Below are positions 29,137 to 42,694 of a stretch of 64,000 nucleotides of DNA, in pieces. The DNA is taken from positions 87,575 to 151,574 of the forward strand of contig JAJPEN010000033.1 of the NCBI GenBank assembly GCA_021166835.1, read 5' to 3'. Every line of letters begins with the position of its first letter. Position 1 is the stretch's first letter. Source of the DNA: Burkholderiaceae bacterium. Its GTDB lineage: Bacteria > Pseudomonadota > Gammaproteobacteria > Burkholderiales > Burkholderiaceae. The notes beneath the pieces were generated by a model. It worked only from the letters and a program-made list of their open reading frames with translations, made no database searches and was not told the origin of the DNA. The translations under genes and the position numbers were made by a program.

Positions 29137-30180
29137 ATGAACCCGCATCGATTGGGCCGCCGTGCCTTCGCGCTCGCCGCGGCCGCCGCGCTCGCCGCAA
29201 CGGCTCCCGTGCTGCACGCGCAGGAGCAGACCTTCGACCTGAAGATCTCTCACTGGGTGCCCCCGTCGCATCCGCTGCAGAAGGCGCTCGAGGAGTGGGC
29301 CGCGTCCGTGGAGAAGGCGTCGAACGGAACGATCCACTCGAAGGTCTACCCGTCGCAGCAGCTGGGCAAGGCCTTCGACCACTACGACATGGCGCGCGAC
29401 GGCATCGCCGACATGACCTACGTGAATCCGGGTTACCAGCCGGGGCGCTTCCCGATCATCGGCGCCGGCGAGCTGCCGTTCCTGCTGTCGAACGCGAAGG
29501 GCGGCACGCAGGCGATCGACGAGTGGTATCGCAAGTACGCCGAGCGCGAGATGAAGGACGTGAAGTTCTGCTTCGCGTTCGTGCACGACCCCGGCAGCTT
29601 CCATTCGCGCACGAAGAAGATCATGGTGCCGGAGGACGTCTCCGGGATGAAGATCCGTCCGGCGCACGCGACAATGGCCACCTTCGTCACGATGCTCGGC
29701 GGCACCAACGTGCAGGCGTCGGCCCCCGAGGTGCGCGACGTCATCGAGAAGGGCGTCGCTGACGCCGTGACGTTCCCGTGGGGCTCGGTGATCCTGTTCG
29801 GCATCGACAAGGTCACCAAGTACCACATGAACGCGCCGTTGTACGCGACCACCTTCGCGATGGTGTTCAACAAGTCGAAGTACAACCGGATGTCGGCCGC
29901 TCAGAAGAAGGTGATCGACGATCACTGCAACAACGAATGGGCGGTGCGGGTGGCTTCGCCGTGGGCCGACTTCGAGCACGCTGGCATCGCCAAGCTCGCC
30001 GCGGAGGAGGGGCACGAGGTCTACAATATCACGCCCCAGCATACGGCGGCATGGAAGAGGGCTGCCCAGCCGCAGCACAACACGTTGGCCGACAACGTGC
30101 GCAAGGTCGGCGTCGATCCCGATGTGGCGATGAAGGAGTTCGAGGCGCTGCTCGAGAAGTACGGCGCCGCGGCGAAGTGA
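29137..30180 (+). CDS. TRAP transporter substrate-binding protein DctP
   Basis: This 347-residue periplasmic protein of the DctP family has a signal peptide ending near LHA–QE. Typical regions are LKISHWVPPSHPLQKALEEW, VYPSQQLGKAFDHYDMARDG, the substrate-carboxylate region around SGMKIRPAHATM with its conserved Arg, and FVMVF-type FAMVFNKSKYNRM. The ligand is probably a carboxylic acid. A strong GAGGAGGAG site precedes the start. The stop overlaps the GTG start of the small membrane subunit. Confidence 0.94.
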   Translation: MNPHRLGRRAFALAAAAALAATAPVLHAQEQTFDLKISHWVPPSHPLQKALEEWAASVEKASNGTIHSKVYPSQQLGKAFDHYDMARDGIADMTYVNPGYQPGRFPIIGAGELPFLLSNAKGGTQAIDEWYRKYAEREMKDVKFCFAFVHDPGSFHSRTKKIMVPEDVSGMKIRPAHATMATFVTMLGGTNVQASAPEVRDVIEKGVADAVTFPWGSVILFGIDKVTKYHMNAPLYATTFAMVFNKSKYNRMSAAQKKVIDDHCNNEWAVRVASPWADFEHAGIAKLAAEEGHEVYNITPQHTAAWKRAAQPQHNTLADNVRKVGVDPDVAMKEFEALLEKYGAAAK

Positions 30181-30752
30181 CGACTGGCGCTGGCGCACCG
30201 CCGGAGGGCGGCGCGGCGCCGCCGCCGGCGGCCGTCGCCGCCCATCCGGGGCTCGACCGCTTCATCCACGTGATCGAGGTCACGGCGGCGTGGTTCCTCG
30301 CCGTCGTGACCGCGCTCACTTTCGTGTCGGTGATCCTGCGCTACTTCTTCGCCTGGCAGATTCCCGACACCTACGACTTCAGCCGCCTGCTGCTCGCCAC
30401 GCTGATCTTCTGGGGCATGGCGGGCACCGGCTATCGCGGCGAGCACATCACGGTCGACCTGATCTGGGGGGCGTTGGGGCGTGGCTGGCAGCGCGCGCTC
30501 GACGTCTTCGCCACGGCACTGACGCTGTTCGCGATGACCGCGTTCGCGATCATGATGGGCAGCAAGGTCCTCGACACGCGCGCCGAGAACGTGCTCACCT
30601 TCGATCTGCGACAACCGGTCTGGCTGTATTACGCGCTCGCATGGATCGGCCTGGTCGCCGCCGTGCTGCTGCTCGTGATCCGGCTGTACCGACTGCTGCT
30701 GCATCCGCTCGCGCTCGAGGACGGGTCGCGCGCCCACGTTTCCACCGAATGA
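30177..30752 (+). CDS. TRAP transporter small permease DctQ
   Basis: This 191-residue protein has four membrane helices in its C-terminal 160 residues, after a Pro/Ala-rich start. The DctQ pattern is seen in FVSVILRYFFAWQIPDTYDF, WGMAGTGYRGEHITVDLIW and the closing WIGLVAAVLLLVIRLYRLL. The GTG start at 30177 overlaps the dctP stop (GTGA). It forms the membrane complex with DctM. Confidence 0.92.
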   Translation: MTTGAGAPPEGGAAPPPAAVAAHPGLDRFIHVIEVTAAWFLAVVTALTFVSVILRYFFAWQIPDTYDFSRLLLATLIFWGMAGTGYRGEHITVDLIWGALGRGWQRALDVFATALTLFAMTAFAIMMGSKVLDTRAENVLTFDLRQPVWLYYALAWIGLVAAVLLLVIRLYRLLLHPLALEDGSRAHVSTE

Positions 30753-30756
30753 TTCG

Positions 30757-32058
30757 ATGAACGAGCACGCGGTAGCGGTCACCGGTTTCGTCGTCCTTTT
30801 CGTCCTGATGCTGTTGCGCGTGCCGGTCGGCATCGCGATGGGGCTGGTCGGCATCATCGGCTTCGGCTACCTGAACCAGGACTGGGGCTCGGCGATGAGC
30901 CTGCTGGCGCAGTCGCCGATCCGCACCGTTGCCGACGTGCAGTTCGCGGTGATCCCGCTGTTCCTGCTGATGGGCGCCTTCGCTTCGGCGTCGGGCATGA
31001 GCCGCGAACTGTTTCGCGCTTCGAACGCGTTTGTCGGGCACTTCAAGGGCGGGCTGGGAATTGCCACGATCGCAGCCTGCGGCGGTTTCGCGGCGATCTG
31101 CGGCTCGTCGGTAGCGACCGCGGCCACCTTCTCGTCGGTGGCGTATCCGGAGATGCGTCGCTACGGGTATCCGCAGAGCTTCTCCACCGGCGTCATCGCG
31201 GCCGGCGGCTCGCTGGGCATCATGATTCCGCCTTCGACCGTGCTCGCCGTCTACGGTCTGATCACCGAGCAGGACATCGGCAAGCTGTTCATCGCCGGGA
31301 TCCTGCCCGGCATTCTCGCCGTCTCGATGTACATCTTCACGATCAACCTGATCGGCATGGTGCGGCCCGGCTTCCTGCCCGCCGGCGAGCGGCAGACGCT
31401 GCGCGAAAGGCTCGCCTCGCTGCGCGACATCTGGGCCGTGGTGCTGCTGTTCCTGTTCATCATCGGCGGGCTGTATGGCGGTCTGTTCACTGCGACCGAG
31501 GCCGGCGGCATGGGGGCGGCCGGGGCGTTCATCATCGGCGTGCTGCGGCGCAGGCTGTCGCGCAGCCAGTTCATGCGGTGCCTGATCGAGTCGCTGCGAA
31601 CGACCGCCGCGGTGTTCACGATCCTGATCGGCGCACTGCTGTTCGGCTATTTCCTCACCATCACCCAGACGCCGCAGGCGCTCACGTCGTGGCTCACCGG
31701 GCTGGGGCTCGGCCCCTACGGCGTGCTTGCGCTGATCCTGCTGATGTACCTGCTGCTCGGCTGCATCATGGACGCGATGGCGATGATCATCCTCACCGTG
31801 CCGATCGTGTTTCCGCTGATCCTGCAGCTGGGCTTCGACCCGATCTGGTTCGGCGTCATCGTCGTCGTCACCGTCGAACTGGGCCTCATCCATCCGCCGG
31901 TAGGGATGAACGTGTTCGTCATCAAGAGCGTCGTGCGCGACGTGAAGCTGTCGACGATCTTCCTCGGCGTGGCGCCGTTCGTCGTCACCGACATCGTGCG
32001 GCTCGTGCTGCTCGTCGCGTTCCCGGTCATCGCGACGTACCTGCCCGCGCACATGTGA
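30757..32058 (+). CDS. TRAP transporter large permease DctM
   Basis: This 433-residue protein has about twelve membrane segments and is the transport-catalysing subunit of the TRAP system, driven by sodium or proton gradients. Family features include VIPLFLLMGAFASASG, AACGGFAAICGSSVATAATF, GGSLGIMIPPSTVLAVYG and LGLIHPPVGMNVFVI. It starts four bases after dctQ. Confidence 0.95.
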   Translation: MNEHAVAVTGFVVLFVLMLLRVPVGIAMGLVGIIGFGYLNQDWGSAMSLLAQSPIRTVADVQFAVIPLFLLMGAFASASGMSRELFRASNAFVGHFKGGLGIATIAACGGFAAICGSSVATAATFSSVAYPEMRRYGYPQSFSTGVIAAGGSLGIMIPPSTVLAVYGLITEQDIGKLFIAGILPGILAVSMYIFTINLIGMVRPGFLPAGERQTLRERLASLRDIWAVVLLFLFIIGGLYGGLFTATEAGGMGAAGAFIIGVLRRRLSRSQFMRCLIESLRTTAAVFTILIGALLFGYFLTITQTPQALTSWLTGLGLGPYGVLALILLMYLLLGCIMDAMAMIILTVPIVFPLILQLGFDPIWFGVIVVVTVELGLIHPPVGMNVFVIKSVVRDVKLSTIFLGVAPFVVTDIVRLVLLVAFPVIATYLPAHM

Positions 32059-32195
32059 GGGCGTCGGTGCTCGCGCTCGCCGTCGTGCTCCCGCTCGCCG
32101 GCTGCACGCCGTTCCCGGCGCCCGACGGACGGACGACCCGGACGGCGCAACGCTGCGCGGGCGCAGTTCAGGCTTCGTGCAGGCGCCGGAAATAG
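32055..32195 (+). CDS. Possible small lipoprotein downstream of dctM
   Basis: A GTG at 32055 makes a GTGA overlap with the dctM stop and opens a 46-codon frame. Its N-terminus looks like a lipoprotein signal: RASVLALAVVLPLAGCT, with a lipobox LAGC at residues 14–17. The mature part is short and basic, with two more cysteines. The end overlaps the 3' end of the opposite-strand peptidase gene by 28 bases. The coupling and lipobox argue for a real gene; the short length and lack of recognisable family argue against. Confidence 0.35.
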   Translation: MRASVLALAVVLPLAGCTPFPAPDGRTTRTAQRCAGAVQASCRRRK

Positions 32196-34108
32196 CCGCC
32201 CTGGCATCGGTACTCGCCGTCGATCGCCGACCAGTAGCGCTGCGCGTCGCGGCTCGCCAGGTACCTTCGGCGCTTTTCGAGCCGCCCGCGACCGACAACG
32301 CTCTTCAACACGACGTAGCGCACCCTGGCGTCCGGCGCGAGCAGGATCGTGCAGCCTCCATGGTAGGAGAACGCCGGTCCGGCGGGGCCCGCGCGTACGT
32401 GCCGCAACTGCGTGACCTCGGCGACCAGGTCGAACGCGACCTGTCCGTCGGGTCCGATGCGTCGCGCCGTGCGGATCGACTCGACGCAGGGCGCATCGAC
32501 GCGATCGCCGGCCAGCCGCGGATCGTCCGACGCTACGAGACCGAACTCGTCCAGATGCGCCGCGTGCGTGACGAATCGTCCGAGTGCTTCGGCCTGGCGG
32601 CGTCGTTCACGGACGTCCGCGACGTCGGCGGGATCGCAGCGAAAGCGCCGCTCGTCGAAGCCGAGCGCCGACACCGGAGGCAGGTCGATGCGCGGCGGAT
32701 GCCACAACAGCGCGTCCTCCGACAGGCTCGGCACCGACTCGGGATAGATCCGGCGCCGCCGGAACGCGTCGACGAGCGCGCCCCGGTAGTCCCACGGGTC
32801 GTCGGGTACGAGGTCGTGGTCCGCGGTGACGAGTGCGCGCAGGTAGTCGCCGAAGGTGAGCCCGACGGGAGGGCAGTAGTCGATGGCGCGAATGCAGATG
32901 GCGAGGAACTGCCCGGCGAGCCTGCTCGCCTGGTCGGCGAGCAGGCGCCGCAGGTCGTGCGCGAGTTCGCCTGGCGAGAGCATGCCGCTGCCGTCGGTAG
33001 CCAGTCGCACGTAGCGCTCGGTCTTGCGACGATAGATCGTCACGAACGCTTCGAACACGGCGCTCATCAGCACCGCGCCGAGCCGGTGCGCCTCGAACTG
33101 TTCGCTGTACAGCGTCGGATGCTCAGGGTCGTCGTCCACCGCGCTGCGCATCGGGCCTTCGCGCTCGGTCGTGTGGCCGAACTGCTGCGCGAGGCCGTTG
33201 AGCAGCGAGCGATGCGCGAGCTCGCCGCGACAGCGCCGGATCGCCTGCGCGACCACCTCGCGATAGCTGAAGTGCTGGAACAGCGCGACGAGATCGGCGA
33301 ACGCCTCGTGGAAGGCGACGACGTCGGCGCCGCTGGGCTCGGCGAGCTTCGCGCGCAATCCGTCGAGAAGCGCATGCGTCACCTCGTGCGCGACGATGTC
33401 GTGCGACAGGCAGGTGAAGACCACGCCGCGCGGAAGCGTCCGATCGCTCGGCGCGTCGGGCGCAGCGTAGTAGCCGAAGCACAGTGCGCCTTGCGTGCCG
33501 CGGTTCTCGTACCACGCGTTGCGCGCCTCGCCGCCGTGCGGCTGCAGCAGCAGCCTTGCCGGCGTCGGCGATGCCGGATCGCCGAAGCCCCATTCCGGAT
33601 TGCGACCCAGCGCCTTGCGGAAAGTCGCGTACACGTTGCAGCACACCGCATACACCATCTGCTGATGGAAGCGCGGATCGGACGGCGACGGCGCGTAACC
33701 GTCGGCGATCAGCACGTTCGGATCGTCTAGATCGGCGCATCGATACGACGCGCCGAGCGAGAGGTCGCGGTTGTCGACGACGAAGAGCCGGCCCGCCGGT
33801 CCGGGTTGCAGCGGCTCCCACGGTACGTCGATGGTCGCGATCGCACCCTCGAGCCTCGACGCCGACGGATCGATGGCATAGATGCGCAGCGGGCGGTACA
33901 GCGGCTCGTCCCGGCGGCGCTGGTGCGGTGCCATCGGAACACGGCCGATCGCCGCCGACAGCGAGAACGGCTGTGCTTCGATCGAAGGGGGCGGCGCGGG
34001 CGGCAGCGGGGCGCGCACCGGCGCCGTCGTTCCGTCACGACTCTGTGCCTCGGCGGCGACGGCCTCGGTCGTCGTCGCGGCGCTGTCCGCGGTCGGGTTC
34101 TCCGCCAT
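32168..34108 (-). CDS. M4-like (gluzincin) zinc metallopeptidase without signal peptide
   Basis: This 646-residue protein has a zinc site of the thermolysin type: HEVTH at residues 241–245, and the third ligand E268 in HEAFADL, 27 residues from the first histidine. The N-terminal 70 residues are Ala/Pro-rich and contain no signal peptide, so it appears cytoplasmic, unlike secreted M4 proteases. A cysteine-containing VYAVCCNVYATF segment and several repeats of acidic residues around 330–350 follow the family only loosely. The C-terminal 200 residues are unrecognised. It is the third gene of a leftward operon, 12 bases after the amidase–hydrolase–caspase fusion. A role as a downstream protease, or one activated by the caspase domain, is an inference. 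Confidence 0.8.
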   Translation of the reverse strand: MAENPTADSAATTTEAVAAEAQSRDGTTAPVRAPLPPAPPPSIEAQPFSLSAAIGRVPMAPHQRRRDEPLYRPLRIYAIDPSASRLEGAIATIDVPWEPLQPGPAGRLFVVDNRDLSLGASYRCADLDDPNVLIADGYAPSPSDPRFHQQMVYAVCCNVYATFRKALGRNPEWGFGDPASPTPARLLLQPHGGEARNAWYENRGTQGALCFGYYAAPDAPSDRTLPRGVVFTCLSHDIVAHEVTHALLDGLRAKLAEPSGADVVAFHEAFADLVALFQHFSYREVVAQAIRRCRGELAHRSLLNGLAQQFGHTTEREGPMRSAVDDDPEHPTLYSEQFEAHRLGAVLMSAVFEAFVTIYRRKTERYVRLATDGSGMLSPGELAHDLRRLLADQASRLAGQFLAICIRAIDYCPPVGLTFGDYLRALVTADHDLVPDDPWDYRGALVDAFRRRRIYPESVPSLSEDALLWHPPRIDLPPVSALGFDERRFRCDPADVADVRERRRQAEALGRFVTHAAHLDEFGLVASDDPRLAGDRVDAPCVESIRTARRIGPDGQVAFDLVAEVTQLRHVRAGPAGPAFSYHGGCTILLAPDARVRYVVLKSVVGRGRLEKRRRYLASRDAQRYWSAIDGEYRCQGGYFRRLHEA

Positions 34109-34120
34109 TTCTGCCGCCGT

Positions 34121-37060
34121 TCAGTGCGTCGTTTCGATGGCGTCGATCGCCCCGGTTGCCGCTTGCGCAGCGTCGCGCAGCGGCTGCAGCAGCCGCAGCG
34201 AGAGCGCGTCCGGGGCGCAGTCGAGCATCGGGTGCTGGCGCGGGTTCGCGCCGAACGCTTCGGTCACGCGGTGTACGAACTGTTCGTTCGTCGTCGCGCC
34301 GACGCCTTCGGTGAGCAGGTGCGTCGCGCGCAGCGTGAACTCGCCGTGCCCATCGCTCTCCCAGGCCACCTCGCTGTCCAGGCAGGCGGCGAACTTCACG
34401 TCGCGCATGCGGCTTCGCCCTCCGGTTCCCTGCGGCGAGGCCGAGCGCATCGCGAAGCGCGGCTGTTGGCGGAAGCGTCGATGCGCGTCGATCAACTCGG
34501 CGGTCGGCACGACGAAGCGCTTGCGCTCGTCCGAGGCCGTAGCGCGCGGCCGGCTGTCGGGGGCGCCGACGGCGAAGCGGCTGTTGGTGCCCGAGTGACA
34601 GCAGTCCATGAAGAAAGTCAGGCTCACGCCGTCGGGCAGCTTGCGCAGCACGCGTGCGATGTCGTCGTCGATGTACAGAGCGCCCGAGGCGAAATCCACC
34701 GGGCAGATCGCCTCGTCCTCGCGGTCGTCCTCGTCGCCATCGAGATCGGGTAGATGCGTTCCGTGTCCCGAGTATTGAAAGACGAGGACGTCGCCGGCGC
34801 GGCTGCTCGTCACCAGGCTGTCCAGTTCGCGATCGATCGCTTCGCGCGTGGCTTCCTGGTCGATGAGCATCGTCCTTTCGAAGCCCAGGCTCGACAGCGC
34901 CTCCGACCACATCCGGGCGTCGGCCACGCAGCCGGCAAGTCGGTGCTTCGGATCGGGATAGCGATCCACGCCGATGCACAACGCGGCGCGACGTCCGTTG
35001 CGGGCGATCGCCGGAGGAAGGCCGAGCGCGGTCGGTGTCGGCATCTCGCCGTTCGACGGGATCGCCACGATCGACGGCTCGAGCGGTTCGAGCGACGTCG
35101 GCGCAGTCCAGCTCGTTGCCGACGACGGCCATTCGTACGTGGTGCCCGCTGGCCAGTCGATCTCCTCGGACCAGGGACGCGGTTCACGCCGCGAGCGCAC
35201 GACACTCGCGTAGTCGACGATCGCGTCCGCGTCGGCGCGGCCCAGTACCCGCCGCGCGAGGCTGTTCATCGTCGGCGCGTCGTCGTCGAAGGCGGCGTGC
35301 GCGCGCGCCGTGCTCGCCGAGGCTCCGGTGTCGCCGGGCGTGACCGACCAGACGACGCCGCCCGTGGTGGACGGCGTGCTGCCCAGTCCGAAAAGGCGTT
35401 TCATCTGCGGGTCGGCGCGCAGGCTTTCCTCGAGCCCGAGGATCGGCGCACCGCGCTCGCGCTCGAGCGCGTTGGACACCAGGTACAGCAGCGACTTGTG
35501 GTAGATCCCGGCGCAATCGTCGTCGCGCTCGTAGTCGCGCTGCATGGTGAAGAGCGTCAGTCGACGCACTGCTCCGTTCTCGCCGACGCGCTCCGCGAGA
35601 CGATCGCGGAAAGTGTCGATCCGCACGGCCGGTGCGAGGAACTGCGCCGACTCGAAGGTCTGCACGCCGAGTTCGTGCGCACAGGCGAGGAAATGCGAAT
35701 GAAGAATCGTGCCCGCGCTGTGGCCTGCCGCGTGCAGTTCGACCTGTTCCGGATGCGCGTCGCAGAACGCCTTCAGCTTCGCGGCGACGTAGCGGGCACC
35801 TCCGCCCAGGGGATCGTCTGCGCCGGGCGCATCGACCGAGCGTTCGGCGCTCGCTTTCATCCCCGCCCAGATTCGCCCGCCCTGCAGTGCGCGCGCGCCC
35901 ACCTCGATCAGCGGATCGAGCGTGTGATCCCACAGGTCGCGCGGAATCCCGCGCATCGCTCCCTGTTGCGCGCGCGTGAGCAACTGCGAGATGGTCTCCA
36001 GCAGCCCGGTCTCCCAGATGAAGTGGATCGGATAGACCTCGTTGCGCTTCCACCATTCGACGTGACGCGCCGCGATCTGCAGGCCGCTCGATTCGGAGAC
36101 GAGCCCGCCGTGCGCGTAGAGCAGCACCCGCAGTTTTCTGCCGCGCCCGCGCGCCTCCCGCAGCGCGCGCGGCAGCGACTGCTCGAAGATCGCATCGACG
36201 TCGGCAGCTGTGGTCGAAAGCTCGCCGCCCGCGGAAAGCCGGCCGAACCGCAGGTTGACCAGGTGCGGACGCAGCGACGCGAGCAGCGCTGCATCGATCG
36301 ACGCGCCGCGCGGCCGCTCGGCCGGGGCGCGTCCGGCGCCTGCCGCCGCGGGCTGTGCGCCGGGAACGCGATATTCGGCGGGCGTGGCTTCCTCGTCGTG
36401 CGACAACTCGGCGTCGCCCGGTTCGGGCGGCGCGGTCGACGCGCGACCGAGCGCGTCGATTGCCTCGCGCACGACCAGGTCGGATTCGTCGGGGAACGGA
36501 CCGCGCGATTCCTGCGCGGGCTTCGCCGCGCGTCCGCGCGTTGCCGACAGGTGCTCGACCTCGGCGAGGATCTGCGCGAAGTCCAGCGAAGTGCCTGGAC
36601 AGGTCTTCGTGGACATCGCGTTGTGGAACACGAGCGAATCGGCGTGCAGGCCGAACCTTGCCTGCACCTGCGCGACGACTCCGAGCGCCGTCTCGCGCTG
36701 CGCGCCATCGAAAGGATCGCAGCCGCGGTCGAAGTTGCCGATCATCTCGAACATGAACGGCCCGAACCGGGCGTTGCCGTTGTGTCCCGCCGCGCTCACC
36801 GGCGGCAGGTTCCAGTTGCGGCCGAGCCAGACCCAGCCTTCCGGATCGATCGTCAGGTGCTGCGCGATGTCCCGCCAGCCTTTCTCCCGGGTGTGGAAGC
36901 GCCACATCGCGACGATCGTTTCGTGGCCGCGAAAGTCGCTTCGTTGCGGCCGCCAGGTGTGGTGCATGTGCACGGCGTTGACGTGCCTCGTGAACGGGAA
37001 ACGGTCGAGCAGTTGCGAGAACTGATCGAGCGACAAGCGCTTGAACACGGGCGTCGGCAT
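34121..37060 (-). CDS. Amidase/PGRP–serine hydrolase–metacaspase fusion protein
   Basis: This 979-residue protein has three parts. Residues about 25–170 are an Amidase_2/PGRP fold; the zinc ligands H33, H146 and C154 and the lysine K152 have the same spacing as in T7 lysozyme, but Q67 occupies the position of its catalytic tyrosine. Residues about 255–545 look like an α/β hydrolase, with LLYAHGGLVSE near 314–324 and a nucleophile elbow GHSAG at 446–450 (S448). Residues about 688–960 are a metacaspase-like peptidase: ALCIGVDRYPD, H766 in YSGHGTH, the acidic segment up to DEAICPVDF, and C821 in DCCHSGT. There is no signal peptide or membrane segment. Linkers around 175–255 and 560–685 are low in complexity. 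The ATG at 37060 is chosen because GAGGAG is six bases before it. It is the second gene of the three-gene operon. Confidence 0.88.
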   Translation of the reverse strand: MPTPVFKRLSLDQFSQLLDRFPFTRHVNAVHMHHTWRPQRSDFRGHETIVAMWRFHTREKGWRDIAQHLTIDPEGWVWLGRNWNLPPVSAAGHNGNARFGPFMFEMIGNFDRGCDPFDGAQRETALGVVAQVQARFGLHADSLVFHNAMSTKTCPGTSLDFAQILAEVEHLSATRGRAAKPAQESRGPFPDESDLVVREAIDALGRASTAPPEPGDAELSHDEEATPAEYRVPGAQPAAAGAGRAPAERPRGASIDAALLASLRPHLVNLRFGRLSAGGELSTTAADVDAIFEQSLPRALREARGRGRKLRVLLYAHGGLVSESSGLQIAARHVEWWKRNEVYPIHFIWETGLLETISQLLTRAQQGAMRGIPRDLWDHTLDPLIEVGARALQGGRIWAGMKASAERSVDAPGADDPLGGGARYVAAKLKAFCDAHPEQVELHAAGHSAGTILHSHFLACAHELGVQTFESAQFLAPAVRIDTFRDRLAERVGENGAVRRLTLFTMQRDYERDDDCAGIYHKSLLYLVSNALERERGAPILGLEESLRADPQMKRLFGLGSTPSTTGGVVWSVTPGDTGASASTARAHAAFDDDAPTMNSLARRVLGRADADAIVDYASVVRSRREPRPWSEEIDWPAGTTYEWPSSATSWTAPTSLEPLEPSIVAIPSNGEMPTPTALGLPPAIARNGRRAALCIGVDRYPDPKHRLAGCVADARMWSEALSSLGFERTMLIDQEATREAIDRELDSLVTSSRAGDVLVFQYSGHGTHLPDLDGDEDDREDEAICPVDFASGALYIDDDIARVLRKLPDGVSLTFFMDCCHSGTNSRFAVGAPDSRPRATASDERKRFVVPTAELIDAHRRFRQQPRFAMRSASPQGTGGRSRMRDVKFAACLDSEVAWESDGHGEFTLRATHLLTEGVGATTNEQFVHRVTEAFGANPRQHPMLDCAPDALSLRLLQPLRDAAQAATGAIDAIETTH

Positions 37061-37074
37061 GATCATCTCCTCGT

Positions 37075-38646
37075 TCAGGCGGCCGCCTGCGCGGCCGGCA
37101 CTGCGGCAGCGGCCGGCTGCGGCGCGGACTTCTTGCGGTACAGGTGGGGAACGAACCAGCCGATCGTCGCGCCGATCAGCAGCGACGTCGCGGCCATCGT
37201 CGGAACGCGCTCGGCCATCCGCGCGGGCGCCGCGCCGACCGCGATCAGCAGTTCGACGATCATCCACTGCAGCAGTGCGAACGCGAGCGCCAGACCCACC
37301 GTCTCGGCAACGCGCAGCCACCCGGGCGCTTTCCCCGGATCGTCGGCGTAATCGTCGGCGGTCCATGCGATCGCCACCGTCGCGAAGAACACCATCAGCA
37401 GCCACGGCCAGCGCTCGACCGTCACCGTGAAAACCTCGCGGAAGCGGCCGGGCGAGCCGAGCGCGTCGAACAGGTTCCCCGAAAACTCGAACACGTAGCG
37501 GAACAGCAGCGAAACGAAGAAGGCGGCGGCCGCGGCGAGCGCGCCCGAGGCGCAATAGCCGGCGACCGGACGGAAGCCGACGCGACGGATGTCGGCGAAG
37601 GGCCAGATCGCCTTCGGATAGATCGCCAGCACCACCGCGATCGCGTAGATCATCGGAACCATGACGAGCACGCGCAGGTTCGGTGCGAGCGGCGCCGGCG
37701 AGACGAAGCGGCGCGCGACGAGCGTGATCAGCAGCATGCCGAAGAAGATCAGCCCGGCCACGAGGAACACCTCGTGCACGTCGAGCACGGGGCGCGACTG
37801 GCCGATGCCGGGAAAGCCGAGGCGCGCGAGCGCAGCGTGGCGCTGGCGCGGACCGAGCTCTACCTGCAGCACGCCGCCGGCGACGAAGTCGCACAGGCGC
37901 TGCTCCAGATCGTCGATGTCGCGCGGAAGTCGTCGGCGCAACGGCTGTCCGGCCAGAAGCTGCGCGTCACCGTCCAGCGTGCGCAGCGTCTTCTCGTCGA
38001 GCCCCGCCATCGCGTCGAAGCGCTCGCCCAGTGCCACGAAGGCAACTTTCTGCTCTTCCACGTAGCGCGCGTAACCGGCGGTCTGCGCCCACGGCCGGAT
38101 CGACGCATAGAGCACGGTCGCGCGCGCCCAGCGGTGCAGCAGCGAGGATTCCGGCGCGAGCAGCCAGCGTTCGTCGACCTGCAGTTCCGCGAGCGTCGGG
38201 CGCAGCCGCTCGATCGACTCCGGGTACAGCACGAGCGGCGTAGCGGCGATGCGGCCCGACAGCTCGCGCGCCTCGAACGGGATGTTGCCGATGCGTTGAA
38301 ACCATCGCTTGACGGCGTCGTCGATCTTGTTCAGGTAGGGAAAGTGCGGCAGCAGCGACGTCAGCACGAGCGCGGCGAACAGCGGGCCGGGCATCTGCTC
38401 GACCTGGTCGGAGACGGCGTCCACCTGCAGGAACTTCCAGACGGCGTCGAGGTCGATGTCGGTGAATGCGCCGCCGAGGACGAGGAACAGCGCGAGCATC
38501 GAGAATACGTAGCCGACGCGCGCCATCCAGTAGCGCAGGAACGTGGTGGTCGGCCGCGTGGGCCCGGGTGTGTCGAAGCGGTCGAGCGCGTAGAGCCAGA
38601 CGACGACAGCCCCGAGAACCCATTGCAGGAGCAGCGAGCGGTTCAT
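37075..38646 (-). CDS. Polytopic membrane protein, first gene of the caspase operon
   Basis: This 523-residue protein has about nine hydrophobic spans: three in the first 110 residues, then a cytosolic or periplasmic region of about 180 residues, and six in the C-terminal half. I recognise no family. The middle region is rich in Arg, Leu and Glu and includes PESSLLHRWARATVLYASI. The C-terminus is an Ala/Pro tail after a basic HLYRKKS. A GGGAG site precedes the ATG at 38646. It is followed 14 bases later by the amidase–hydrolase–caspase fusion, so it probably anchors, senses for, or is the target of that effector. Confidence 0.75.
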   Translation of the reverse strand: MNRSLLLQWVLGAVVVWLYALDRFDTPGPTRPTTTFLRYWMARVGYVFSMLALFLVLGGAFTDIDLDAVWKFLQVDAVSDQVEQMPGPLFAALVLTSLLPHFPYLNKIDDAVKRWFQRIGNIPFEARELSGRIAATPLVLYPESIERLRPTLAELQVDERWLLAPESSLLHRWARATVLYASIRPWAQTAGYARYVEEQKVAFVALGERFDAMAGLDEKTLRTLDGDAQLLAGQPLRRRLPRDIDDLEQRLCDFVAGGVLQVELGPRQRHAALARLGFPGIGQSRPVLDVHEVFLVAGLIFFGMLLITLVARRFVSPAPLAPNLRVLVMVPMIYAIAVVLAIYPKAIWPFADIRRVGFRPVAGYCASGALAAAAAFFVSLLFRYVFEFSGNLFDALGSPGRFREVFTVTVERWPWLLMVFFATVAIAWTADDYADDPGKAPGWLRVAETVGLALAFALLQWMIVELLIAVGAAPARMAERVPTMAATSLLIGATIGWFVPHLYRKKSAPQPAAAAVPAAQAAA

Positions 38647-38870: not shown

Positions 38871-40262
38871 ATGAAGCGCGCTCGGGGCGGGCCGGGTTCC
38901 GGCGGCACGGACGACGACGCGCATTCCGGCAAAGTCCGGCCGTCGCCGGCGCGCGTGCCGCAGACGCGCATCGGACGGCTGGCCAACGTGGCGCTGGCCG
39001 TGGGCGAACTGGCGCTGGCCGGGCTGGGCGAGGGTGCGCGTCGCGTGCTGGCCGACGGCAACGTCGCCTCGCTCGGCGCAGGCGCCTGGGTGTCGGCCGA
39101 CAACGCGCGGCGCCTCGCGGCCCGGCTCGCGCGGCTGCGCGGCGGCGCAATGAAGCTCGGGCAGATGATGTCGATGCAAGGGCCCGATCTGCTGCCGCCG
39201 GAGTTCGCGCAGGCGCTGGCGATCCTTCGCGCGCAGGCGGCGCCGATGCCGCCGGCGCAACTGCATCGCGTGCTCGGGCGGGAGTACGGCAAGGGCTGGC
39301 GCGCGCGCTTCGAGCGCTTCGACGAGCAGCCGATCGCCGCCGCATCGATCGGGCAGGTGCATCGAGCGCGCACCATCGACGGGCGCGAGCTCGCGCTGAA
39401 GATCCAGTATCCGGGCGTCGCCCGCTCGATTCGCGGCGACATCGACAACGTGGTGGCCCTGCTTCGGCTGCTGAAGCTGCTGCCGCGCGACGCGGACATC
39501 GACGCGCTCGCCCGCGAGGCAGTGCGGCAGTTGTCGCAGGAGGCCGATTACCTGGCCGAGGCCGCAGCGCTCGGGCGCTTCGCCGCGCTCGTTGCCGACG
39601 AGCCGCGCCTGTACGCGCCGCGCGCGCACGCCGACCTCACCACCAGCCGCGTTCTCGCGATGGACTTTGTCGACGGCGAGCCGCTCGACGCGCTCGCGCG
39701 GCCGGGGGTGACGCAGTCGGTTCGCAACGAAATCGGCACGCTGCTCGAACGACTCGTGTTTCGCGAGTTGTTCGAGTTCCGCACCATGCAGACGGACCCG
39801 AATTTCGCCAACTACCTTTGGCAGCCCGACCGCGGGCGCATCGTCCTGCTCGATTTCGGCTCGACGACCGATTTCGATGCCGACTTCGTCGCGGCCTACA
39901 CCCGCATAACGCAGGCGGCGATGAGCGGCGATCGCGACGCGGTTGCGCAGTACGCCATCGAGATCGGCTATGTCGATGCCGCCGATCCTGTGCCCCGCAT
40001 CGAGGCCACGGTCGACGTGATCCTGCTGGTCTGCGAACCATTGCGGCATCGCGGCCGCTATGACTTCGCCGCTTCGGACCTGCCGTCGCGCGCGGGGGCG
40101 CTCGGGTTGGACATCGGCATCCGCCAGGGATTGCTGCGCGTGCCGCCCGCGCAGACGATGTTCCTGCACCGAAAACTGATCGGCTCGTTCTTCCTGCTCG
40201 CTCACATCGGAGCGCGCGTGGACGTGCGCTCTCTCATGCTCGCGCTGCTGAAGCGGGCGTGA
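38871..40262 (+). CDS. ABC1/UbiB-family atypical kinase (AarF/ADCK-like)
   Basis: This 463-residue protein has the hallmark motifs of the ABC1 family: the KxGQ motif in GGAMKLGQMMSMQGPDLLPP, the Ala-rich loop in AAASIGQVHRART, the lysine in LALKIQYPGV, the substrate loop DPNFANYLW and the metal-binding LLDFGST. Members support ubiquinone synthesis or lipid homeostasis. It has no C-terminal membrane anchors typical of UbiB proper, so it may be a general AarF-domain kinase. It is divergent from the caspase operon; no link is evident. Confidence 0.9.
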   Translation: MKRARGGPGSGGTDDDAHSGKVRPSPARVPQTRIGRLANVALAVGELALAGLGEGARRVLADGNVASLGAGAWVSADNARRLAARLARLRGGAMKLGQMMSMQGPDLLPPEFAQALAILRAQAAPMPPAQLHRVLGREYGKGWRARFERFDEQPIAAASIGQVHRARTIDGRELALKIQYPGVARSIRGDIDNVVALLRLLKLLPRDADIDALAREAVRQLSQEADYLAEAAALGRFAALVADEPRLYAPRAHADLTTSRVLAMDFVDGEPLDALARPGVTQSVRNEIGTLLERLVFRELFEFRTMQTDPNFANYLWQPDRGRIVLLDFGSTTDFDADFVAAYTRITQAAMSGDRDAVAQYAIEIGYVDAADPVPRIEATVDVILLVCEPLRHRGRYDFAASDLPSRAGALGLDIGIRQGLLRVPPAQTMFLHRKLIGSFFLLAHIGARVDVRSLMLALLKRA

Positions 40263-40754: not shown

Positions 40755-41594
40755 TCAGCGGCGCTGCAGGCGCCGGTACGCGTTGAAGTGCCGCACCGCC
40801 TGCTGCGCGTGGCCCAACTGGTCGTGCAGACGCGCGGCGTTGAAGTGCGCATCGGCCGATTTCGGCTCGAGCGCGAGGCAGCGCTCGTAGCTCTCGAGGG
40901 CGGCCTCGCGCTCGCCCAGATCCTCGAGTGCCACCGCGAGATTGAAGTGCAGCGAGCCCACGGCGGGCGAGCACCGCAGTCCTTCCCGGTAGACGGCCAC
41001 TGCGTCCGCGCTGCGGCCGAGGTCGCACAACAGCGCACCCAGGTTCAGCCTCGCGTCGGCGTGCGTGGGTTCGATGGCGAGCGTGCTGAGGTACGCCGCC
41101 TCCGCCTGCTCGGCACTGCCTTCGCTCTCCAGACGCTGCGCGCGGCGAAAATGCGTGTCGGCGTCATCTGCAGCGCGGCTTGCGCGCTGGCGATGCGCAA
41201 GCATGCGGATGCTTCCCGATGCACGGACGACGTCGAAGTCGATCAGCAGTTGCCCCGATTCGGGCTCCCATTGCACGTCGCCTTCGCGCACGGCCACGGT
41301 GCTGCCCACCGCGGTGACCCGCAGACCGCTCAGTGGAAGTTCCGCCGGAAGAGAGCGGCGCAACTGCCGGAGCGAGCGCAGGATCGTGCGCGGAGCGATT
41401 CTTTGTGTGCGCAGCGCCTGCGCGGTGCGCAGCAGCACGATGTCCCGGAAAGAGAAGCGCAACTCGTTGCGCGCGCCGCGCGACGGCGTGACGAAGCCGG
41501 CGCGCACGAGCGAGCGTGCGATGCCCGGCGAGATGCCGAGCATCGTCTCGAGGCTCTTCAACGTGTACGGCGCATCGTCCGGTTGCGTCGTCAC
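40755..41594 (-). CDS. MerR-like HTH plus TPR-repeat protein
   Basis: This 279-residue protein starts with a MerR-like winged helix (TLKSLETMLGISPGIARSLV and FSFRDIVLLRTAQALRTQRI). A middle region includes DVQWEPESGQLLIDFD. The C-terminal half has at least three tetratricopeptide repeats (AEAAYLSTLAIEPTHADARL, AVAVYREGLRCSPAVGSLHF, ALESYERCLALEPKSADAHF). Its GTG start overlaps the ku stop by four bases, so the two are co-translated. Such MerR/TPR proteins occur beside bacterial ku genes. A role in control or assembly of the end-joining system is inferred. Confidence 0.85.
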   Translation of the reverse strand: MTTQPDDAPYTLKSLETMLGISPGIARSLVRAGFVTPSRGARNELRFSFRDIVLLRTAQALRTQRIAPRTILRSLRQLRRSLPAELPLSGLRVTAVGSTVAVREGDVQWEPESGQLLIDFDVVRASGSIRMLAHRQRASRAADDADTHFRRAQRLESEGSAEQAEAAYLSTLAIEPTHADARLNLGALLCDLGRSADAVAVYREGLRCSPAVGSLHFNLAVALEDLGEREAALESYERCLALEPKSADAHFNAARLHDQLGHAQQAVRHFNAYRRLQRR

Positions 41595-42505
41595 TTCTTC
41601 GATCGCGCCCGGGCGCGCGCAGGCGGCTGCTCCTCCTGCGCGGTGGCGCGCCTGGGCGCCTTGCGGGCGCGTGCCGCAGGCGCGGCCTGCGGCTCGGCGT
41701 CCTGCTCGGCTGGTGCCCGCGCCCCGGACGCCTTCGCGCCCAGACTCGCGCGCAACGCCTGCATCAGATCGATCACCTGCGCGCCGGCCGTGGGGGTCGC
41801 CTCCTCCTGCACGACGATGCGCTTGCCGGCGATCTTCTCGTCGATGGCGGCGAGGATGCGCTTCTTCTCCTCGTCCTCGAACTCCCTCGGATCGTAGTGG
41901 TCGGTGGAGATCTGCTCGATCAGTTGCAGCGCGAGCTTCAGTTCGGCATCGGTGACCGCCGCCTTCTCGATGTCGAGGTCCTTCAGCGAGCGCACCTCGT
42001 CGGCGTAGAGCAGCTGTTGCAGCACCATGCCGTCTTCCGAAGGACGGATCTGCACGACGTATTGCTTGCCCTTCCACGCCCATTTCGCCAGCGCGCAGCG
42101 GCGGCTTTCGCGCATCGCCTTCACCAGCAGGCTGTACGGCTTCGCGCCGCGCTTGTCGGGCGCCAGGTAATACGCCTTGTCGTAGTAGATCGGGTCGACC
42201 GCCTTCTCCGGAATGAAGGCGACGATGTCGATCGTGTGGCTCGGGCTTTCCTGCAGCGCCTTCAACTCGTCGGGCGTGAAGGTGACGAAGCGGTCCTTCT
42301 CGAACTCGTAGCCCTTGATCAATTCGGAGCGATCGACGACCTGTTCGTCGCGCGCCGAAACGTATTGCTGCCGGACGCGCTGTCCTTCCGGCGTGAGCAG
42401 GTTGAAGCGGATGGCGGCCGAGCTCTCGGTGGCCGTGTACAGCTTCACCGGAATCGAGACGAGGCCGAAGGACAGCGACAGCGAAGCGATCGAGCGCGCA
42501 GCCAT
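41591..42505 (-). CDS. ku: Bacterial non-homologous end-joining protein Ku
   Basis: This 304-residue Ku protein binds DNA double-strand ends as a homodimer. Family features run from MAARSIASLSLSFGLVSIPV through FNLLTPEGQRVRQQY, a central YYLAPDKRGAKPYSLL, and LKLALQLIEQISTDHYDP near residue 200. The last 60 residues are a Lys/Arg/Ala-rich tail, as in bacterial Ku proteins that use it for DNA binding and ligase contact. AAGGAG precedes the ATG by seven bases. LigD, its usual partner, is not in the window. Confidence 0.96.
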   Translation of the reverse strand: MAARSIASLSLSFGLVSIPVKLYTATESSAAIRFNLLTPEGQRVRQQYVSARDEQVVDRSELIKGYEFEKDRFVTFTPDELKALQESPSHTIDIVAFIPEKAVDPIYYDKAYYLAPDKRGAKPYSLLVKAMRESRRCALAKWAWKGKQYVVQIRPSEDGMVLQQLLYADEVRSLKDLDIEKAAVTDAELKLALQLIEQISTDHYDPREFEDEEKKRILAAIDEKIAGKRIVVQEEATPTAGAQVIDLMQALRASLGAKASGARAPAEQDAEPQAAPAARARKAPRRATAQEEQPPARARARSKK

Positions 42506-42694
42506 GCGAGTCTCCTTGCCACCAGCGCAGGGCGCTGCGACGAGTATACGGTGCGTCAGGGAGGCAAGCGAAGTTCCCGGCTGGGCCACGCAAGCATGCA
42601 GGGGAGACCCCTTCGCCGGGAACGTCGACTCCGCGCCGGCCGGCGATCGGTCGGGGGACTCTTCGGCGGCCGGACGCCGCACCCGGGCCGCGCG

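What the first reader, a model, noticed from the sequence alone, without database searches (positions are those of the whole stretch)
32168..38646. Three-gene membrane protein / amidase–hydrolase–caspase / M4-peptidase operon: candidate undescribed system
Three leftward genes are separated by only 14 and 12 bases: a nine-span membrane protein of no recognised family, a triple-domain fusion with a metacaspase-like protease, and an M4-like zinc peptidase. Neither of the two soluble proteins has a signal peptide. A cell-wall-sensing fold, a serine hydrolase, a caspase and a second protease in one operon is the logic of an immune or cell-death module: sensor, self-processing protease, downstream effector. 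I know of bacterial caspase-based defence systems but not of this composition. The function is inference.
Basis: partly seen in the sequence, partly recalled or inferred. Interest (0 to 1): 0.85.

Follow-up and report, generated by a model that had tools for sequence, protein, structure and literature searches.

The report
Caspase-led two-protease self-destruct operon
Bacteria from several phyla carry the same two neighbouring genes, one for a fused protein with a wall-amidase domain, a predicted hydrolase and a caspase-like protease, the other for a second, zinc-type protease, and together they would likely act as an inducible self-destruction or defence device, which has not been tested by experiment here.

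Summary
The three genes, gaps and domains are real. The conserved unit is two genes, not three: an Amidase_2–serine hydrolase–metacaspase fusion followed by a thermolysin-fold zincin. In 78 related genome loci the zincin lies directly downstream in 48 of the 67 testable loci that keep the caspase part and in 0 of 8 that lack it. In one locus collinear with Polaromonas, the caspase core and the zincin gene are both gone while the rest of the fusion stays open. Active sites are conserved. The membrane gene belongs to the window's close relatives. Zincin relatives without the fusion, read at 18 loci, mostly have an MBL-fold partner (15), often with phospholipases nearby; two plasmid islands hold Hachiman genes and one also a CBASS cyclase. 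The fusion–zincin pair itself shows no consistent defence-gene neighbourhood. I read it as a metacaspase-switched proteolytic death module. The caspase–zincin link is well supported by genomics; trigger, cleavage and killing are inferred. Amidase_2–metacaspase fusions were listed in print in 2012 (PMC3501461); my searches found no description of the zincin partner or the MBL sister module.

The parts
34121..37060 (-). Amidase_2 – serine hydrolase – metacaspase fusion, 979 aa (alternative start 37066)
   Evidence: ORF; Pfam; M1 of the 979-aa form kept in the 120-row alignment
36605..37000 (-). Amidase_2 / PGRP-like domain, residues 21-152; zinc-ligand candidates H31/H33, H146, C154; K152; Q67 at the place of a T7 lysozyme Tyr
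35243..36292 (-). serine hydrolase domain, about residues 257-606; proposed triad S448, D514, H588 (inferred from conservation and strand order)
   Evidence: conservation; no Pfam match; strands in the model
34229..35005 (-). metacaspase (Peptidase_C14) domain, residues 686-944; H766, C821; acidic loop D772-E783
32168..34108 (-). thermolysin-fold zincin (M4-like), 646 aa, no Pfam family above cut-off
34037..34072 (-). conserved tail motif of the zincin, residues 13-24, ends in Ser-Arg; candidate metacaspase site or docking helix (role inferred)
33374..33388 (-). HEVTH zinc motif, residues 241-245
   Evidence: H241, E242, H245 in 48 of 48 fusion-linked rows (47 loci and the window) and 9 of 9 other rows
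33293..33313 (-). FHEAFAD, third zinc ligand E268 and D272
32168..32614 (-). C-terminal helix plus beta domain of the zincin, residues 499-646, fold not identified
   Evidence: model; outside the stretch spanned by the fold matches
37075..38646 (-). polytopic membrane protein, 523 aa, 6 strong and 3 weak hydrophobic segments; accessory of the window's close relatives

Best explanation
This is a conserved two-gene module in which a predicted metacaspase, fused to an amidase-like and a predicted hydrolase domain, likely switches on a dedicated intracellular zinc protease and would thereby kill or arrest the cell when its envelope is breached. Shown: the gene pair, the domains and predicted folds, the kept active sites, and that in the loci examined the zincin adjoins members of this family only where the caspase part is present. 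Inferred: the Amidase_2 domain reads or trims peptidoglycan fragments that reach the cytosol; calcium entering through a damaged envelope activates the metacaspase; the metacaspase acts after arginine in its own linkers and, where the zincin has the long tail, in that tail; freed zincin and hydrolase attack proteins and lipids. The membrane gene of the window would be a local sensor, anchor or safety device.
Against: No functional data. 19 of 67 caspase-bearing loci have no zincin: 9 with all three domains (one, L064, split over two genes) and 10 without the amidase part. The tail motif is absent in 21 of 46 fusion-linked zincins, and 2 of the 25 matches look like chance, so tail cleavage cannot be the general switch. 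Neighbourhoods of the pair are mixed, not defence islands. The amidase domain has Gln where T7 lysozyme has Tyr, and in L040 it is degenerate, so its activity is doubtful. L048 and L035 are metagenome bins; the loci are not phylogenetically independent. Co-divergence also follows from joint inheritance.
Confidence: 0.45

Rival explanations
1. The pair is an anti-phage immune system proper: phage infection, not general envelope damage, is the trigger, and suicide or arrest limits phage spread.
For: The zincin's sister branch occurs on plasmids with MBL-fold and phospholipase partners; two islands (R. leguminosarum L130, Agrobacterium L127) hold Hachiman HamA/HamB and L130 a CBASS cyclase. The window's branch is patchy and its zincin tree mixes phyla. 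PADLOC's generic caspase model matches.
Against: The fusion branch itself shows no consistent defence-gene neighbourhood. No evidence of phage response was available.
Confidence: 0.25
2. The amidase, hydrolase and proteases form a lysis or recycling toolkit: a programmed autolysis or post-death digestion system, not an immune one.
For: Amidase, hydrolase and protease domains in one unit; the 2012 survey argued for a cell-death role of Amidase_2 metacaspases and called a lipase-amidase-protease form in Chitinophaga a destructive weapon (PMC3501461, passages).
Against: The proteins lack export signals; the full fusion is rare within one order (4 of 300), unlike growth or recycling genes.
Confidence: 0.15
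3. The products are exported antibacterial effectors (type VI or contractile injection cargo), with the membrane protein as the immunity factor.
For: Amidase, lipase and protease domains are common cargo (recalled); one locus has a Tle1-like neighbour (L041); a membrane gene sits directly upstream in the window.
Against: No secretion gene is among the 25 commonest of 171 neighbour families (the rest not shown); actinobacterial loci carry the hydrolase-caspase form; among the 78 loci the membrane gene is only in L001.
Confidence: 0.07
4. Caspase and zincin are merely co-transcribed, each with separate housekeeping substrates.
For: Function is untested; 19 of 67 caspase-bearing loci lack the zincin.
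Against: 0 of 8 caspase-less loci keep the zincin; joint absence in L048 and L035; other proteases (CHAT, trypsin) stand at some loci without zincin.
Confidence: 0.08

Closest known systems
Amidase_2-bearing bacterial metacaspases of the 2012 survey (PMC3501461; passages seen)
   Same: Polaromonas naphthalenivorans is one of the four cases listed there, and a protein so named belongs to this family (P0038); a cell-death role was suggested there.
   Different: In the passages seen, no hydrolase domain in the Polaromonas protein, no zincin partner and no conserved gene pair are mentioned; a lipase domain is mentioned only for Chitinophaga.
Metacaspases/orthocaspases (Peptidase_C14)
   Same: His-Cys dyad, acidic loop, metacaspase fold.
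   Different: Carried as the last of three domains and coupled to a second protease gene.
Thermolysin-fold peptidases M4 and M36, protealysin
   Same: Fold over about residues 68-466, HExxH plus Glu.
   Different: 10-15% identity in those fold matches, PF01447 matched by 1 of 19 members at E 0.024, no signal peptide, extra C-terminal domain.
Multi-enzyme conflict systems with caspase, CHAT, trypsin and STAND parts (PMC7159879, PMC8195603; passages only)
   Same: Swappable peptidases and lipid hydrolases in one locus; one Microbacterium locus scanned here adds CHAT and NB-ARC genes (L057).
   Different: No NTPase domain found in the window's operon; 'amidase' and 'thermolysin' do not occur in PMC7159879, nor 'amidase' in PMC8195603.
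MBL-fold proteins of defence systems (PADLOC models LmuA, Avs1a, RTasMBL)
   Same: Three sister-branch MBL-fold proteins match these models weakly.
   Different: The window's operon has no MBL protein, and the MBL profile found none among the called genes of the 78 fusion loci.

Membership tests
Bacterial metacaspase (C14) | His-Cys dyad | tested here: met
   H766 and C821 in 69 of 69 rows that hold the domain (of 79 rows)
Bacterial metacaspase (C14) | caspase fold with metacaspases as nearest structures | tested here: met
Bacterial metacaspase (C14) | cleavage after Arg or Lys, calcium dependence | not testable with these tools
   acidic loop D772-E783 largely conserved; activity needs enzyme assays
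M4 peptidase (thermolysin family) | thermolysin-type fold | tested here: met
M4 peptidase (thermolysin family) | HExxH plus downstream Glu | tested here: met
   48 of 48 fusion-linked rows
M4 peptidase (thermolysin family) | match to the family model PF01447 | tested here: not met
   1 of 19 members, E 0.024; so it is called M4-like, not M4
Amidase_2 / PGRP | family model above its cut-off | tested here: met
   42 bits against 26
Amidase_2 / PGRP | His, His, Cys zinc ligands | tested here: met
   H31 53 of 54, H33 53 of 53, H146 54 of 54 and C154 53 of 54 rows with a letter; T7 lysozyme alignment; which residues bind zinc is recalled
Amidase_2 / PGRP | catalytic Tyr of T7 lysozyme | tested here: not met
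   Gln67 at that place in 53 of 54 rows with a letter; that this Tyr is catalytic is recalled, and some amidases use another residue
Avs1 / Lamassu type systems | NTPase (STAND or SMC) component in the operon | tested here: not met
   no NTPase domain in the three proteins
Known anti-phage systems in PADLOC | models for the partner proteins | tested here: not met
   only the generic caspase model matches; none for the zincin or membrane protein
Type VI or contractile injection effector | adjacent secretion genes | tested here: inconclusive
   none in the 25 commonest of 171 neighbour families; full list not shown by the tool

The most novel reading that the evidence does not exclude
A widespread bacterial execution system: an intracellular PGRP-like sensor, a hydrolase and a calcium-type metacaspase in one chain that turns on a dedicated thermolysin-fold executioner. 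Its sister arm, zincin plus MBL-fold protein often with a phospholipase, would be an unrecognised, often plasmid-borne anti-phage system, so that one protease family serves two alternative, mutually exclusive immune architectures.
Probability: 0.33. Interest if true: 0.82.

Novelty: new variant of a known kind. Interest (0 to 1): 0.64.

Why it matters
What bacterial caspases cut is largely open (general knowledge). Here comparative genomics names a specific candidate target or partner, an adjacent zincin that was absent in every testable locus without the caspase part (8 of 8). That makes a caspase-to-executioner cascade, the core logic of animal apoptosis, directly testable in bacteria. The same zincin family links to a second, MBL-based module, found on plasmids in some cases beside defence genes, which is a separate lead.

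Tried and rejected
Three-gene unit: rejected. Among the 78 loci the membrane gene is only in L001; it is in 0 of 300 order-level genomes, 1 of 74 family-level genomes (that one being L001's own), 0 of 21 of one genus, and on no plasmid record. Searches had no positive control; searches did. Equal contig lengths (for example 4013439 and 62544) suggest the triplet in further close relatives. Its context in the more distant relatives (58% identity and less) could not be read.

Defence-island setting of the pair: 120 neighbours (the 4 nearest genes of at least 170 aa in 30 of 78 loci) gave 11 PADLOC families with 13 member-matches at 1e-10 and no theme; there is no background control. The comparison set of 68 neighbours of zincins without the fusion matched 96 models, but many models are redundant and HamA/HamB come from two similar islands, so no rate is quoted.

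Tail cleavage as the general switch: rejected as general, since 21 of 46 fusion-linked zincins lack the motif (L012 left out as broken, L072 without a start found). The conserved Arg in the fusion linker (R251, 96% of 120 close relatives) fades in distant loci.

Dropped before counts: the non-fusion zincin set (18 loci) leaves out the four weakest matches (85-110 bits), most of the 60 plasmid records (11 read, not at random, besides the Kovacikia plasmid, which has the fusion), and extra zincin copies in genomes, which were not read. The 15 tails leave out L094/L138, L126 and L139, where the zincin lies in a longer ORF; the L141 call seems to start late.

Literature: 8 searches. In one search, 15 of 28 papers were listed, and of these only PMC3501461 holds Amidase_2 with caspase. 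PMC3501461, PMC8195603, PMC7159879 and PMC6426788 were seen as found passages, not in full; other papers as listings only.
Full report
Observation. The fusion has Amidase_2 at residues 21-152 and Peptidase_C14 at 686-944, both above Pfam's cut-off. Between them lies a hydrolase domain with no Pfam match but with GHSAG at S448. The third protein has no family match above cut-off in Pfam and none in NCBIfam or PADLOC, but carries HEVTH and a downstream HEAFAD. Neither soluble protein has a signal-like N-terminus; the membrane protein has six strong and three weak hydrophobic segments.

How common. The fusion has 1488 relatives and the zincin 7970 at E <= 0.001, both lower bounds because candidates were capped; the membrane protein has 70. 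A scan of one genome per species gave 424 confirmed fusion relatives, of which 78 distinct loci were kept, from Proteobacteria, Desulfobulbaceae, Acidobacteria, Armatimonadetes, Chloroflexi, Chlorobi, Planctomycetes, Gemmatimonadetes, Verrucomicrobia, Bacteroidetes and Actinobacteria; in the last two groups no zincin adjoins the fusion in these loci. A cyanobacterial plasmid also has fusion and zincin side by side, the zincin there in two frames.

The unit is a pair. Of the 78 loci, 75 have enough sequence downstream. The zincin follows directly on the same strand in 48 of the 67 testable loci that retain the caspase part and in 0 of the 8 that lack it. In 47 of the 48 the zincin match starts within 150 bases of the fusion's end or before it; in L072 a long leader precedes it, but its ORF starts at the fusion's end. 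One copy (L012) is broken across frames. The amidase part is absent in 5 of the 48 (one of them, L021, because the contig ends) and the hydrolase part in 2; the caspase is never absent. Against this, 19 of the 67 have no zincin: 9 with all three domains (L064 split over two genes) and 10 without the amidase part. In 300 genomes of the order of Polaromonas L003 (Burkholderiales, recalled), 4 carry a full-length fusion and all 4 have a zincin above 850 bits next to it; no other genome of the 300 has a zincin match that strong. The centre genome is one of the 4, another is the genome of L013, and one search scored at most two candidates per genome. Pairwise identities of fusion and zincin correlate with r = 0.91 over 44 pairs, which joint inheritance alone would also give. 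The zincin tree mixes phyla at supported nodes, for example Armatimonadota with Chlorobiota and Desulfobulbaceae with Nitrosomonas, and puts 8 rows without the fusion in one supported set. This suggests transfer, although metagenome bins may hold stray contigs.

A natural deletion. L048 is collinear with Polaromonas L002 at about 78-87% identity over about 17 kb, except that some 730 bases of L002 encoding the caspase core and about 1.9 kb holding the zincin gene have no counterpart, while the rest of the fusion's frame stays open to a stop. A search of that genome finds no zincin. L035 also has an amidase-hydrolase protein with no caspase and no zincin within its 14-kb locus; its genome was not searched. 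Both are metagenome bins, so isolates should be checked. The pattern says that the zincin is not kept without the caspase.

Partner replacement. Some loci without the zincin carry other proteases or lipid hydrolases. Hymenobacter L027 has a protein with LCAT, M17_N and CHAT matches. Azospirillum L014 has a CHAT tail on the fusion and an LCAT-like neighbour. Microbacterium L057 has a CHAT protein and an NB-ARC/DUF4062 protein. Sphingomonas L068 has no caspase in the fusion and a trypsin-like neighbour. Magnetococcales L041 has a Tle1-like lipase. L020 and L022 have no such neighbour among the genes scanned.

Active sites. Across 79 fusion rows (78 loci plus the window) the caspase His and Cys are kept in 69 of 69 that have the domain, the hydrolase Ser in 77 of 77, D514 in 75 of 76 and H588 in 76 of 76. 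The amidase ligand candidates are H31 53 of 54, H33 53 of 53, H146 54 of 54 and C154 53 of 54. The zincin's HExxH and E268 are kept in 48 of 48 fusion-linked rows (47 loci and the window) and in 9 of 9 other rows. The triad and ligand assignments rest on conservation and recalled templates. Where T7 lysozyme has a Tyr in the GW-D-x-x-Y-H stretch, the fusion has Gln, and L040's amidase part is degenerate, so this domain may bind rather than cut peptidoglycan, or be dispensable.

Tail motif. In 120 close relatives the zincin's variable N-terminus holds an island, T-x-x-A-V-A-A-x-A-Q/A-S-R, with the Arg in 92% of the rows that have a letter there; a lone helix is drawn at 14-24 in a low-confidence stretch. 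A simple form of the motif occurs in 25 of 46 fusion-linked zincins (shuffled mean 2.7); two of these (L029, L039) look like chance. It is in 23 of the 24 with a long tail and in 1 of 15 zincins without the fusion, which mostly start at or near the catalytic domain. In L001 the QSRE element is present three times. A conserved Arg followed by Asp or Gly also lies in the amidase-hydrolase linker of close relatives. Since orthocaspases cut after positively charged residues (PMC6426788 abstract), these are candidate sites; docking is the alternative. As about half of the pairs lack the tail, this cannot be the only switch.

Sister module. Zincin relatives without the fusion were read at 18 loci: 7 genomes of the order sample and 11 plasmids (what was left out is in Tried and rejected). 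An MBL-fold protein is next door in 15, two further neighbours were not tested, and one locus (L133) has none. A profile of that MBL protein finds nothing among the called genes of the 78 fusion loci, so the two partners look mutually exclusive. Of 68 neighbours scanned, 6 match patatin, 3 Tle1-like lipase and 2 PLD, besides two patatins left out of that set. On R. leguminosarum pRle248a the module lies between a CBASS cyclase and HamA/HamB; an Agrobacterium plasmid has the same DUF1837-helicase neighbours.

Interpretation. The best reading is a metacaspase-switched execution module. Well supported: pair, folds, active sites, dependence of the zincin's presence on the caspase. Inferred: trigger, order of cleavage, targets, outcome. 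The fusion branch is not tied to defence islands, so an immune role rests on the sister branch and on general logic.

What is known. A 2012 survey listed Amidase_2 metacaspases in four genomes, Polaromonas naphthalenivorans among them, and suggested a role in cell death (PMC3501461, passages). The zincin partner, the co-loss and the MBL sister module did not turn up in my searches, which cover only an open-licence library and listings cut short. Hence: a new variant of a known kind, the caspase-bearing bacterial conflict or death operon.

Noticed in passing
L130:4818-13163; L127:4881-13153; L140:6482-11421; L126:4735-9277; L129:5980-9458; L144:7983-11345: Zincin plus MBL-fold protein on plasmids, with a patatin (L130, L127) or PLD (L140) gene directly upstream; L130 and L127 beside Hachiman genes, L130 also near a CBASS cyclase. 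No PADLOC match for the zincin in L130 or L126.
   Followed up: partly
L057:4911-12208; similar gene sizes in L056, L058-L060: CHAT/DUF7363 protein and an NB-ARC/DUF4062 protein directly upstream of an amidase-less hydrolase-caspase fusion (Pfam run on L057 only).
   Followed up: partly
L012:13006-15137: Zincin broken across several frames next to an open fusion; L022 from the same bin has a fusion with the same coordinates and score but no zincin.
   Followed up: no
L001:13098-15074: The zincin tail carries the QSRE element three times.
   Followed up: no
L016:207-2141; L020:4374-7309; L023:4812-6266: A haem peroxidase gene (L016) or RoxA-like cytochrome genes (L020, L023) adjoin the fusion in three lineages.
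   Followed up: no
L132:5956-13371: Mesorhizobium plasmid with separate hydrolase, caspase, phospholipase D and trypsin-like genes in a row; the hydrolase gene is a relative of the fusion's middle domain.
   Followed up: no
MT836994.1:4687-5880: A 9.5-kb unannotated phage record holds a 45% identical zincin stretch covering 63% of the query.
   Followed up: no
window 30177-32058, 38871-40262 and 41591-42682: Flanks look like TRAP transporter, AarF/ABC1-type kinase and Ku-like genes; names are recalled from the sequences, not searched.
   Followed up: no
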